From Elusimicrobiaceae bacterium (GTDB lineage Bacteria > Elusimicrobiota > Elusimicrobia > Elusimicrobiales > Elusimicrobiaceae), in the NCBI GenBank assembly GCA_017961585.1, contig JAGCWX010000031.1:1-64000 (forward strand): DNA of 64,000 nucleotides, given 5' to 3'. Both the position numbers and the translations under genes were made by a program. Within the stretch, counting starts at the first letter, position 1. Each line of letters begins with the position of its first letter. Positions 25,451 through 28,675 of this stretch are shown one piece after another. The notes under the pieces were generated by a model. It searched no databases. It had not been told where the DNA came from and worked only from the letters and a program-made list of their open reading frames with translations.

Positions 25451-26617
25451 TTATTTGTACAATGCACTTTTAAATTCGGCCGTTTGGTTAATCTCTTTAA
25501 ACAACCAACCTTTTTGTTTATCGTCAAACAACGCTTCAAAATTTTCAAAGTTGTGTTGTAAGGCCTTTTCCAAGTATTTGTACATATTTTTGCGATCTTT
25601 TTTGTTCGTCCAGTACCATCCCGCCAAGTTGACGTACGGCGTAGGGGCGGTGGGATCTAGCAAAATAGCCATTTCAAAATCCGCCTTGGCACCGGGAAAA
25701 TCTTTTAAATTCAGCCGGGCAAAACCGCGGTTATTATACGCAATCGCCCACTTGGGTTCCAACACCACCGCTTGGTGATAATCGTTACGGGCATGTTCAT
25801 AATCGCGTAGTTCCTCGTACACCAGCCCGCGGCGATTGAACCAATAGGCCTTGGGATCTAAGGTAAGGGCTAAAGAATAATCTTCCAACGCGGCCTCATA
25901 ATCCCCCATTTCTTTAAATGCACTGGCGCGCGAGCGCAACCAAGCCGGATTTTTGGGGGCCCGGTTCACCGCTTTACTAAAAGCGGATACGGCCTCGTCC
26001 AATTCCCCTTCGTTTTGTAAAAGCTGCCCTTGCCAATGATAAAGTTGCGAAGAATCATCTCCCTGCTCTTTCAAGGCCGATAACATGGCCTGTGCTTCAT
26101 CATACCGGTACGCACCAATGGCCACGGGGATCATCTCGCGCAATAAAGGTTTGGAAGCCCCTTTCCACGTTTCGCCTACATATTTTTTGTAATCGGCTAA
26201 AGCCGCCGGATATTTTTCAAGCGCACGGTACGAACGCGCCCGCGCCAAATAGAAATTTTCATACGAAGCATTTAAGGAAATGGCTTTGGAAAAATCCGCC
26301 ACCGCCAGGGTATTTTCCCCCATTTTATGATACGCTAGCCCGCGTGCATAATAGCGGAAAGAATCTTTAGGTCGCAAGGACACCACTCGGTTGTAATCTT
26401 GCACGGCGTGGACGTAGTCTTCCAAAGCAACATAGGCATCCGCCCGGTAATGATAGGCATCCACATGCTGGGGCGATTTTTCAATCACTTGGGAAAGCAA
26501 CTCCACCTGTTGGGCGGGGTCTTTGGTTTGTTTGGCTTGCTCAAACAACGGGTCGGCCGTTTCCCCCCACGCGCTAAGTGCCGCGCACATACAAATTATA
26601 TACAAAAATATCCGCAT
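25451..26617 (-). CDS. Secreted TPR-repeat protein
   Basis: A 388-residue protein with a signal peptide (MRIFLYIICMCAALSAWG) followed by about nine tetratricopeptide repeats filling residues 25-370. The repeats show the usual A-Y-x-R-G-x-A and ALADYxxAL patterns (for example AYHYRADAYVALEDY and NNRGFARLNLKDF). TPR arrays bind other proteins. It is probably periplasmic. It is followed upstream on the same strand by a membrane protein gene 15 bp away. No partner can be named. Confidence 0.85.
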   Translation of the reverse strand: MRIFLYIICMCAALSAWGETADPLFEQAKQTKDPAQQVELLSQVIEKSPQHVDAYHYRADAYVALEDYVHAVQDYNRVVSLRPKDSFRYYARGLAYHKMGENTLAVADFSKAISLNASYENFYLARARSYRALEKYPAALADYKKYVGETWKGASKPLLREMIPVAIGAYRYDEAQAMLSALKEQGDDSSQLYHWQGQLLQNEGELDEAVSAFSKAVNRAPKNPAWLRSRASAFKEMGDYEAALEDYSLALTLDPKAYWFNRRGLVYEELRDYEHARNDYHQAVVLEPKWAIAYNNRGFARLNLKDFPGAKADFEMAILLDPTAPTPYVNLAGWYWTNKKDRKNMYKYLEKALQHNFENFEALFDDKQKGWLFKEINQTAEFKSALYK

Positions 26618-26632
26618 ATGTTTATTTAACTA

Positions 26633-27343
26633 TTATTTAAGTAAAAATACAAAATAAATATTTAACAAAAGCACCCCCGCGCCCACCGCATAACAACACA
26701 GCAACAGCAGCGTAGCAAAGAAATGCAAGTTTAAAAATACCGCGCCGGCCAGGGTTGCTTTCCCTGCAAACAATTTACCCAATTTGATCGTTTTGCCGGA
26801 CCATTTGACCACTTTGGCTGTAAGCACACAACGCAACGCCGCACCCAATAACCCCAATACCAGCACCACTAAAGCCCGGGTAAAAACCGGATCCTGCCGC
26901 CGATGAAAAGAGGATACTACTTCCCGCACGCTACCGCTTACCACCGTTTTGGCCTGATCTTTGGAAAGCCCTACATCCAAATCGGAAATTTGCCCGGCGG
27001 CTTTTTGCTGTACTAAATCTAAAAGGCGGTCAATTAAATGGCTCCACTGTACGCAAGCCAAACGCACGGCCAACACGCCGGTAGTAAAAAGGGAATAGCC
27101 AAACGCCACCGCCCCATAAAAAATCAGTACGCACCCAATGCCCAGCCACTTAACCGGCCACGGCCATTGCGCAAACAAAGTGGAAGAAGTAACATAGGCA
27201 ACCAACAAAAAAATACCAATTCCGCCCAGCAAATGGGGCAGAAACCAACGCCGCATATCCGCCGCAAAATAGGCAAACGCTTGCGAAAAGAGTTGTGCGG
27301 TATTTTCTTGTTCCGTGCGTGAGAGAGGAATGCTATTTTCCAT
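26633..27343 (-). CDS. Membrane protein of unknown function
   Basis: A 236-residue protein with about five hydrophobic segments: near residues 36-52, 68-95, 160-178 and two in the last 45 residues. Between them is a soluble loop with charged residues (QKAAGQISDLDVGLSKDQ). I do not recognise the family. Its ATG overlaps the end of a 45-residue Cys/His-rich gene by 11 bp, and the TPR gene follows it, so these three and the GT9-like gene form one minus-strand unit. An envelope role is a guess. Confidence 0.7.
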   Translation of the reverse strand: MENSIPLSRTEQENTAQLFSQAFAYFAADMRRWFLPHLLGGIGIFLLVAYVTSSTLFAQWPWPVKWLGIGCVLIFYGAVAFGYSLFTTGVLAVRLACVQWSHLIDRLLDLVQQKAAGQISDLDVGLSKDQAKTVVSGSVREVVSSFHRRQDPVFTRALVVLVLGLLGAALRCVLTAKVVKWSGKTIKLGKLFAGKATLAGAVFLNLHFFATLLLLCCYAVGAGVLLLNIYFVFLLK

Positions 27344-27470
27344 GGCAGCAACAATGTCCGCAACAAGTATGGGGTTCCCCTTTTTTACACGAGGGAATAC
27401 GATCGGACACTTTAACCATTTTGCCTAATTTCTTGTCGTACACATAGGTACCTGTTTTTGAGTCGCTCAT
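27333..27470 (-). CDS. Small Cys/His-rich protein (45 residues)
   Basis: A 45-codon gene. The N-terminal half has TYVYDKKLGKMVKVSDRIPS and the C-terminal tail is CKKGEPHTCCGHCCCHGK, with six cysteines and three histidines in 18 residues. It starts at 27470 with a clear GGAG site 7 nt upstream. It begins 3 bp after the GT9-like stop and overlaps the membrane-protein start by 11 bp, so spacing and signals are those of a real operon gene. The tail could bind zinc, copper or iron-sulfur; that is inference. I do not recognise a named family. Confidence 0.75.
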   Translation of the reverse strand: MSDSKTGTYVYDKKLGKMVKVSDRIPSCKKGEPHTCCGHCCCHGK

Positions 27471-27472
27471 TT

Positions 27473-28675
27473 TTATTCTCCAAATTTTTGGGTAAACCAG
27501 CGGATAATCCACTCCGGCTTATAGTCAATAATTTTACGATTGTGGCGCGTGTAACTTTGTTCCGGCGCAAAAATTTGTTTTTCTCGCGGCAAAAACGGAT
27601 AAATATGATTAGTAACCACCTCTATATTGGGGTACCACACGTTGTGTACTTTTTTATCCACCCAATGCGAAAGCCCCAAATTGGGCAGTTTAAGCCCGGC
27701 CGATGCCGCCCAAAACACGCTGTTCACCGCAATTACATAAAGTGGAAATTCTTGCTTTAACAAAGCAAGTAGTTGCCAGGTTTGGTTGATGGACAATTTT
27801 TTAATATCTATTTGTAAATACTGCGGGTTTTGCTCCGGCCCGCCCGGGGTTACACTCATTACAAAATAGCCGGCTTTAATAAGCTGTTCGGCCAATGTTT
27901 TCACGTGCGGATAGGTATAATTAGAACTGCGGGAATCTAATTGCAAAAATACAATGCCTTTAGTGCATTGCGCTTGCGCGCGGGCTATGGCCAAATAATC
28001 GGCCACCGGTTTTGCTACGTCGTGCGGGAAATACATCTGCGGGGCCGAAGCATCGTGCGGCAGCGGCAAATTGAACGTATCAAACAAGCTGATCACCCGG
28101 TGCGTAACATATTGGCTGTGATCATAATAGACAGGGATTACCAAAAAATTTTCCGGCACGTCTTTAAGCGCGGCGGAATAATCGTAATTTTTCCAAATGA
28201 GCGGATGACGAGTGCCCTGGAAATAAAATACTTTTTCAAAGTGCGGGTTTTCTTCCAACAATTTGCCAACTAAGGGCGAATTGTTGCGGTCAAATTGCGC
28301 GCCCACATACGCGTAAAACGGAAGGTGCGCATACTTTTGTTTCAGGGCGGCCAAAACGGGGGTCGTATAAAGATAATCGCCAATCCCCATAAAAAACACA
28401 AACGCAAACCCCTTTACGTTCGGATTGGCAGACAAAGCATTATCCAAATTGTAATATACGTGCTCGTGCAAGTACAGCGGCCGGCGAATATGATACCAGG
28501 ACTCATCCAGCGGCAAAGTTTCTTTGGCATCTTGCACCGGGCGTTTGTTAAAGCCGTACCACACCGGGGTACGTTGCGGCACAAAAAATAAAAGCTTGTG
28601 CAACGCAAAGCGGGCACATTCATAGCAAACACAAAACGGACGATGGGCGCGAAGCCACTTTTGAAAACCGGTCAT
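27473..28675 (-). CDS. GT9-like (heptosyltransferase-type) glycosyltransferase
   Basis: A 400-residue protein resembling ADP-heptose:LPS heptosyltransferases. The first-domain signature GIGDYLYTTPVLAALKQKY is near residue 100. The second nucleotide-sugar domain has the family's VFLQLDSRSSNYTYP and later AVNSVFWAASAGLKLPNLGL, where GT9 enzymes recognise the donor. The N-terminal 80 residues are extra, with several cysteines (FCVCYECARF). The start MTGFQKWLR at 28675 is chosen because TATACT ends 7 nt upstream; an earlier in-frame ATG would run into the fmt promoter. Acceptor unknown. Confidence 0.75.
   Translation of the reverse strand: MTGFQKWLRAHRPFCVCYECARFALHKLLFFVPQRTPVWYGFNKRPVQDAKETLPLDESWYHIRRPLYLHEHVYYNLDNALSANPNVKGFAFVFFMGIGDYLYTTPVLAALKQKYAHLPFYAYVGAQFDRNNSPLVGKLLEENPHFEKVFYFQGTRHPLIWKNYDYSAALKDVPENFLVIPVYYDHSQYVTHRVISLFDTFNLPLPHDASAPQMYFPHDVAKPVADYLAIARAQAQCTKGIVFLQLDSRSSNYTYPHVKTLAEQLIKAGYFVMSVTPGGPEQNPQYLQIDIKKLSINQTWQLLALLKQEFPLYVIAVNSVFWAASAGLKLPNLGLSHWVDKKVHNVWYPNIEVVTNHIYPFLPREKQIFAPEQSYTRHNRKIIDYKPEWIIRWFTQKFGE

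What the first reader, a model, noticed from the sequence alone, without database searches (positions are those of the whole stretch)
27333..27470. 45-residue Cys/His-rich protein gene in an envelope operon
A 45-codon gene with strong GGAG spacing, 3 bp after a glycosyltransferase stop and overlapping a membrane-protein start. The tail has six Cys and three His in 18 residues; the first half has a TYVYDKKLGKMVKVSD-type basic/aromatic module. Genes this short are easily missed by annotation pipelines. It may bind a metal or act as a zinc-knuckle adaptor.
Basis: partly seen in the sequence, partly recalled or inferred. Interest (0 to 1): 0.55.

Follow-up and report, generated by a model that had tools for sequence, protein, structure and literature searches.

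The report
Conserved tiny cysteine-tailed Elusimicrobia protein
This is a real, strongly conserved 45-residue bacterial protein, a predicted small hairpin with a cysteine/histidine tail that may bind metal, found across much of one class of bacteria and not covered by the protein-family databases searched.

Summary
The reading frame is real (minus strand, 27333-27470) and belongs to a protein family without a matching Pfam, NCBIfam or PHROG model. A profile finds it in 171 of 340 Elusimicrobiota genomes; three hits look like chance and the rest lie in one class. A 21-residue core, TGxYxYDxKxGKxVKVSxxIP, shows synonymous-biased change and is predicted as a beta-hairpin. The tail carries 3-7 Cys in all 80 loci read, but their order drifts. 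In 42 of 80 loci the gene precedes an unknown helical membrane protein and a TPR protein. In 30 of these 42 a TATAAT-like box ends 5-7 nt before the ATG, which suggests a leaderless mRNA; the window's copy instead sits behind another gene with a Shine-Dalgarno site. In most other loci tRNA-Arg(GCG) is next door. Sister classes lack it but carry FmdB zinc-ribbon proteins with similar Cys tails; no genome of 99 had both, and none had Hsp33. Best reading: a hairpin docking module plus a metal/thiol tail, working like a small FmdB/Ruc-type redox or zinc switch. It fails the FmdB membership tests. A 'zinc knuckle' is not supported; metal binding is plausible but unproven.

The parts
27333..27470 (-). 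45-codon gene with stop (the finding)
   Evidence: translation; family in 171 of 340 phylum genomes at E<=0.01, 3 of them probably chance
27405..27449 (-). residues 8-22, predicted beta-hairpin TYVYD-KKLG-KMVKVS; G7 (just before it), Y9, D12, K14, K20 and S22 invariant among 46 aligned members
   Evidence: AF2 strands 8-12 and 17-22, pLDDT block mean 91 for residues 11-20; alignment A2
27336..27389 (-). residues 28-45, Cys/His tail (6 Cys, 3 His), low-confidence (probably disordered) in the model
   Evidence: pLDDT block means 71 (residues 21-30), 52 (31-40), 44 (41-45); tail Cys counts 3-7 in 80 loci
27478..27481 (-). GGAG Shine-Dalgarno, 7 nt before the ATG
   Evidence: sequence
26633..27343 (-). 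c1: 236-aa helical, membrane-type protein; its start overlaps the small gene's end
   Evidence: ORF; directly downstream in 42 of 80 loci; found only in family f1, 70 of 334 genomes; AF2 pLDDT 89.6; no PDB match at E<=0.001; no Pfam match over cut-off
25451..26617 (-). c0: 388-aa TPR protein with a hydrophobic N-terminus (signal-peptide-like, by eye)
   Evidence: Pfam TPR_1 E=1.2e-41; cluster c0 has 43 members in the loci read
27473..28675 (-). upstream gene, possible glycosyltransferase; cluster c22 with 6 members, so this upstream partner is local to the window's relatives
   Evidence: weak Pfam hit; cluster sizes

Best explanation
The gene makes a genuine small protein in two parts. An N-terminal beta-hairpin (about residues 7-23), too small to have a core of its own and nearly invariant among the members read, probably docks on a conserved partner. 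A C-terminal flexible tail of Cys and His probably binds a metal ion (Zn most likely) and may lose it when oxidised. I think it most likely works like FmdB/Ruc: a small cytoplasmic redox- or zinc-switched protein used in stress or proteostasis, which in class Elusimicrobia stands in for the FmdB protein carried by sister classes. Where c1 is present it is probably expressed with, and may serve, the c1/TPR envelope pair. Shown: a conserved coding frame, a conserved Cys tail, gene linkage in one family, promoter-like spacing, and a complementary distribution with FmdB. Inferred: docking, metal binding, the redox switch, the FmdB-like role and the envelope role.
For: Family in 171 of 340 phylum genomes (G243, G067 and G078 look like chance). 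Purifying selection on the core. Hairpin predicted at high confidence, tail at low confidence. Tail Cys 3-7 in 80 of 80 loci while the core has none in 77 of 80. Of 46 in-class genomes 38 have the small family and 0 have FmdB (PF09723) over the Pfam cut-off; of 53 outside the class 0 have the small family and 43 have FmdB (counted). Hsp33 is absent in 99 of 99 while 8 of 14 control genomes ring. FmdB proteins of the sister classes carry the same kind of tail: an 11-residue identity SCPSGGCCPGC, against at most 9 in 60 shuffles of our tails; tail-to-tail profile score reached by 1 of 200 column shuffles. Ruc (M. tuberculosis Rv0991c) is a published Zn-binding, oxidation-activated chaperone with a zinc-ribbon N-terminus and a disordered tail (PMC7448276; passages and section 8 seen). 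That Ruc belongs to PF09723 is recalled, not tested.
Against: The hairpin core shows no profile similarity to FmdB (probability 0.2%; 48 of 200 column shuffles score as high), and whole-profile probability is 3.4%. The tail-tail probability is only 7.3%. The complementary distribution follows one deep split of the phylum, so it is in effect one evolutionary event. Eight of 46 in-class genomes and 10 of 53 outside have neither protein over threshold; five in-class genomes (G007, G031, G076, G095, G102) have sub-cut-off PF09723 matches at E<=0.001, not examined. The paper describes Ruc's tails as variable and hydrophilic, so a Cys tail is not what makes Ruc a chaperone. No chaperone gene was recognised beside the family, but only selected neighbours were annotated. 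Nothing here measures metal, redox or binding.
Confidence: 0.4

Rival explanations
1. A metallochaperone or metal buffer (metallothionein-like) whose hairpin docks on a transporter or membrane partner (c1 in one family, an RND pump elsewhere) and whose tail carries the metal.
For: Tail rich in Cys and His with order free to drift, as for a buffer; a Cys/His-mixed tail in G102. In five loci the upstream gene is an RND pump (AcrB-type by Pfam for the one tested), with a 2-nt gap in three of them, and a YgaP-like TM gene follows in three. In the window's genus the gene co-occurs with membrane protein c1: both 50, neither 13, c1 only 2, small only 1 (a chance hit) of 66 genomes.
Against: The RND neighbours are a minority and c1 is confined to one family. 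c1 persists without a detected small gene in G108, G109 and G122 (upstream stretches read for G109 and G122). The genus co-occurrence is not corrected for phylogeny.
Confidence: 0.3
2. A factor acting on tRNA or translation, tied to the neighbouring tRNA-Arg(GCG) gene: a small basic Cys protein that binds tRNA or the ribosome.
For: tRNA-Arg(gcg) lies upstream on the same strand in 27 of 38 loci without c1 (9-194 bp away) and on the opposite strand in 16 of 42 loci with c1 (13 of them within 211 bp), so adjacency occurs in both orientations. One FmdB locus of a sister class, L219, has a tRNA-Arg (anticodon acg) about 70 bp downstream, 1 of 30 loci scanned. Core net charge is +2 to +4 in 80 of 80.
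Against: In the window's genome this tRNA lies on another contig. In G102 the neighbour is tRNA-Thr. 26 of 42 loci with c1 have no tRNA within 1.5 kb, and only one of these (L134) has a contig end within 1.5 kb upstream.
Confidence: 0.12
3. A cysteine-codon leader peptide: the ORF only times translation of c1 by Cys-tRNA supply, through the overlapping stop and start.
For: Short ORF, Cys codons just before its end, and an in-frame ATG for c1 starting 10 bases before the last base of the small gene's stop in 35 of 42 loci.
Against: The hairpin half is conserved at protein level, and the family is kept with its tail in many genomes where c1 is not found.
Confidence: 0.04
4. The hairpin is the functional part (a peptide-like ligand for a conserved cytoplasmic partner) and the Cys tail merely crosslinks or dimerises it.
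For: The hairpin is far more constrained than tail order; a similar hairpin (63% over 24 residues) starts a 127-aa protein in a viral contig, L193.
Against: At least 3 Cys in the tail of every one of 80 loci argues for chemistry rather than a spacer.
Confidence: 0.14

Closest known systems
FmdB / Ruc zinc-ribbon proteins (Pfam PF09723 Zn_ribbon_8; Ruc = M. tuberculosis Rv0991c, its place in PF09723 recalled)
   Same: Small size, an N-terminal strand with aromatic-x-aromatic (by eye), a low-order C-terminus; Elusimicrobiota FmdB proteins carry Cys-rich tails, one sharing 11 residues with ours; complementary distribution in the phylum.
   Different: No CxxC...CxxC in the core, PF09723 not among the Pfam matches of 35 members at E<=1, no profile similarity of the core.
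Metal-binding Cys/His tails such as those of SlyD or HypB, and bacterial metallothioneins (recalled, not fetched)
   Same: Short flexible tail rich in Cys and His.
   Different: No enzyme or chaperone domain attached; a conserved hairpin with two aromatics precedes the tail.
N-terminus of a 127-aa protein in viral contig IMGVR_UViG_3300010412_000050 (L193)
   Same: TGTYVFDKKLRKFVLISDRAP, 63% identical over 24 residues.
   Different: Different, longer C-terminal part; the gene follows a 646-aa ORF that reads like a portal protein (by eye).

Membership tests
FmdB/Ruc (PF09723) | CxxC ... CxxC zinc ribbon in the first ~50 residues | tested here: not met
   Core has no Cys in 77 of 80 loci and one in 3; window core has none
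FmdB/Ruc (PF09723) | Scores over the Pfam gathering cut-off | tested here: not met
   35 members scanned against Pfam, PF09723 not matched at E<=1
FmdB/Ruc (PF09723) | Profile similarity of the N-terminal domain | tested here: not met
   hhalign core vs FmdB alignment probability 0.2%, 48 of 200 shuffles as good
FmdB/Ruc (PF09723) | Disordered, variable C-terminal tail | tested here: met
   AF2 block pLDDT 52 and 44 over the last 15 residues; tail variable in length and order
FmdB/Ruc (PF09723) | Binds one Zn; oxidation releases it and activates holdase function (Ruc, PMC7448276) | not testable with these tools
   needs purified protein
CCHC zinc knuckle | C-x2-C-x4-H-x4-C spacing (recalled) | tested here: not met
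   read by eye on the window tail CKKGEPHTCCGHCCCHGK; spacing absent
Metallothionein | Small, Cys-rich, generally few or no aromatic residues (recalled) | tested here: inconclusive
   Tail about 20% Cys on average, but two conserved aromatics in the hairpin; no Pfam metallothionein match among 35 members at E<=1
Leader peptide / attenuator | Meaning lies in codons and in a fixed downstream gene | tested here: not met
   protein-level constraint; present in f2 and f11-f15, where c1 was not found

The most novel reading that the evidence does not exclude
Class Elusimicrobia replaced or reworked the FmdB/Ruc zinc-ribbon protein into a minimal form: the knuckles are gone, the hairpin is kept as a docking clip, and metal and redox sensing has moved wholly into the Cys/His tail. 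This would be among the smallest redox- or zinc-switched stress proteins, made from a leaderless mRNA in many members and, in one family, wired to an envelope pair (c1 and a TPR protein).
Probability: 0.2. Interest if true: 0.62.

Novelty: new variant of a known kind. Interest (0 to 1): 0.45.

Why it matters
A protein of about 45-85 residues kept across much of a bacterial class, yet without a Pfam, NCBIfam or PHROG model in the copies searched, is likely to do something useful there. Its distribution against FmdB and Hsp33 points to an open question, how these bacteria handle thiol, metal or oxygen stress. A member lies in G102, which by its size (1,643,562 bases) I take for the cultured species Elusimicrobium minutum (recalled). 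The repeated TATAAT-6 nt-ATG spacing also makes leaderless translation in this group directly testable.

Tried and rejected
Homology of the hairpin to FmdB: tested by hhalign whole and in parts, with column-shuffle controls for core and tail, not supported; only the tails resemble each other, and the one tail shuffle that beat the observed score did so with an odd outlier of 130. Known families: scans of 35 members gave only weak matches (Pfam best E=0.021; NCBIfam best 0.026; PHROG best 0.0046 for phrog_2656 in 2 members, and phrog_28194 in 13 members at best E=0.011), not followed further. PDB sequence profile: best E=0.13. PDB fold search with the hairpin model: best E=6.2. c1 fold search: best E=0.52. 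Plasmids: no match with one member as query. Phages: no match with a composite query. Other Cys tails in the own genome: 13 pattern matches (2 exact including the gene itself, 11 with one mismatch; reversed control 6); five of the seven other loci fetched were read by eye in six frames and no second small Cys-tail gene was recognised. Weak family hits in G243, G067 and G078 lie in interrupted or long frames and are treated as chance. Zinc-knuckle filing rejected on spacing. Leader peptide rejected because the protein is kept where c1 is not found. Limits: the genome-contig scan used one 9-residue core pattern, so core positions in that set are partly selected for; 270 stretches matched, 84 were confirmed, 80 kept; the 186 unconfirmed were not seen. 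L087 was missed by the regular expression, so '80 loci' means the window plus 79 of 80; some are near copies (78 distinct proteins). L220 was left out of the FmdB alignment, 29 of 30 used. L086 and some others were not in the c1 alignment; 34 of 42 used. In print: the paper searches, in a partial open library, listed no paper that by title or abstract start deals with this family. PMC10783764 was seen in passages only: it lists Elusimicrobia in a table of classes by anti-Shine-Dalgarno type, with an ordinary AAAGGAGG partner, which does not exclude leaderless genes.

Full report
On the minus strand, 27470 to 27333 encodes MSDSKTGTYVYDKKLGKMVKVSDRIPSCKKGEPHTCCGHCCCHGK, with GGAG 7 nt before the ATG, a 2-nt gap from the upstream stop, and an overlap with the start of a 236-aa ORF. 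The stated Cys and His counts are right. The protein has no Pfam or NCBIfam match over a cut-off.

It is a protein family. A search with the protein finds it in 52 of 61 genomes (own included) at E<=1, of which G001 (E=0.19) is taken as spurious. A profile of 35 members finds it in 171 of 340 genomes of the phylum at E<=0.01; re-search suggests that the weak hits in G243, G067 and G078 are chance. The rest are in families f1, f2 and f11-f15 of one class. Of 80 loci from named records, 72 bear an Elusimicrobi- name and 8 say only 'bacterium'. In 42 c1-type and 38 other loci the 21-codon core has a ratio of mean pN to mean pS of 0.31 and 0.21, and third-position differences dominate; seven relatives have no amino-acid change from the window core at synonymous difference 0.39-0.72. 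In 46 aligned members M1, G7, Y9, D12, K14, K20, S22 and C37 are invariant. Because that locus set was found with a core pattern, invariance at some core positions is partly selected; the searches do not rest on the pattern.

Anatomy. AlphaFold2 gives a beta-hairpin (strands 8-12 and 17-22, block pLDDT 91) and a low-confidence tail (block pLDDT 52 and 44). The core has no Cys in 77 of 80 loci; the tail has 3 to 7 Cys in all 80 and 3 to 10 Cys plus His. Tail order drifts (GGCCGHCGCHDD, GPCGGCCGCCHEH, CPMNPGGHTCNGCCGH, SCPHAHVCGSHCKH), which fits metal or thiol chemistry better than one fixed finger. The end of the tail is partly fixed by the overlapping c1 start: an in-frame c1 ATG starts 10 bases before the last base of the small gene's stop in 35 of 42 loci, usually as the AT of the His codon and the next base, so the terminal Cys-His is not independent evidence.

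Context. In 42 of 80 loci the gene is followed by c1, a helical membrane-type protein, and then by a TPR protein. c1 occurs in 70 of 334 genomes, all in family f1. Within the window's genus, 50 of 66 genomes have both, 13 neither, 2 c1 only, 1 small only, the last a chance hit. In G108, G109 and G122 c1 is present and the small gene was not found; the upstream stretches of G109 and G122 were read and hold none. c1 folds confidently (pLDDT 89.6) but matches no PDB fold at E<=0.001. Other neighbours: tRNA-Arg(gcg) upstream on the same strand in 27 of 38 loci without c1 (9-194 bp), and on the opposite strand in 16 of 42 with c1, 13 of them within 211 bp; an RND pump gene upstream in five loci, with a YgaP-like TM gene after the small gene in three; TPR, BacA/UppP and DUF167 genes after it in L128 and L138; ThiF, Ppnp and M32 peptidase genes in others (Pfam names from one representative each). 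No single protein partner is general, which points to a stand-alone function that one family has wired to an envelope pair.

Expression. In 30 of 42 c1-type loci a TA[TA]AAT box ends 5-7 nt before the ATG: 26 at exactly 6 nt, 23 of these with an extended TG; six loci have a Shine-Dalgarno-like motif instead, and six have neither (two of these with a box 1 nt from the ATG). With six bases between hexamer and +1, transcription would start on the A of the ATG, i.e. a leaderless mRNA (textbook spacing, recalled; no transcript was seen). G102 shows the same spacing. Among 3928 ATG codons tested in these sequences, TATAAT ends 6 nt upstream of 39, against 0-10 at every other spacing from 0 to 24, and 12 of the 39 are other genes. 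In the window's whole genome TGnTATAAT-N3-13-ATG occurs 39 times against 9 for the reversed control. The window's own copy lies behind another gene and has a Shine-Dalgarno site instead.

Comparison. FmdB (PF09723) is over its cut-off in 43 of 99 phylum genomes, all outside the class: 43 of 53 outside, 0 of 46 inside; five inside have sub-cut-off matches at E<=0.001 that were not examined; of 14 control genomes 7 ring, 1 over the cut-off. The small family is in 38 of the same 46 and 0 of the same 53. Hsp33 is in 0 of 99 while 8 of 14 controls ring. The FmdB proteins of the sister classes (29 aligned) have Cys tails like ours, one sharing SCPSGGCCPGC; shuffling our tails 60 times gave at most 9 shared residues. 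The tail-tail profile score is reached by 1 of 200 shuffles, although the probability is only 7.3%; the core is not similar to FmdB by profile, 48 of 200 shuffles scoring as high. So it is not filed as FmdB. It may work like Ruc, the M. tuberculosis chaperone with a zinc ribbon that binds Zn and is activated by oxidation (PMC7448276, passages and section 8; its place in PF09723 is recalled). That paper's table gives ruc in 33.33% of 3 Elusimicrobia genomes, and its discussion calls Ruc and Hsp33 anticorrelated in some lineages. The split seen here is a single deep one, so it counts as one event.

Verdict. A real, so far unmodelled small protein family with a plausible metal/thiol tail and an unusually conserved hairpin. 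The most likely working mode, at about 0.4, is an FmdB/Ruc-like redox or zinc switch; a metallochaperone or buffer role is next at about 0.3. The decisive tests are biochemical.

Noticed in passing
window 487 (+), 20302 (-), 22114 (+), 54279 (+): Further ORFs in the window have TATAAT ending exactly 6 or 7 nt before an ATG, so leaderless mRNAs may be common in this genus.
   Followed up: partly
L224 1501-1572; L088, L095, L108 and others: The tRNA-Arg beside the family has anticodon GCG, not the ACG usual in bacteria (usual form recalled), while L219 of a sister class has ACG. Whether TadA is missing in this class was not tested.
   Followed up: no
window 26633-27343 and alignment A3: c1 is a family-specific helical protein, confidently modelled, with no Pfam match over cut-off and no PDB fold match at E<=0.001.
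   Followed up: partly
L193 2962-3345: A viral contig carries the same hairpin motif at the start of a 127-aa protein right after a large ORF that reads like a portal; a search for relatives of that protein in viral contigs found only itself.
   Followed up: partly
L142, L149, L151, L152, L161: In these relatives the gene upstream of the small gene is an RND pump, and in three of them a YgaP-like TM gene comes after it.
   Followed up: no
99 Elusimicrobiota genomes: Hsp33 (PF01430) was not found in any of 99 sampled genomes; 8 of 14 control genomes ring.
   Followed up: yes
G011, G031, G097, G027 and others of the genus: Thirteen of 66 genus genomes lack both the small gene and c1; four of them were re-searched without a hit. 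Whether they form one clade was not tested.
   Followed up: no
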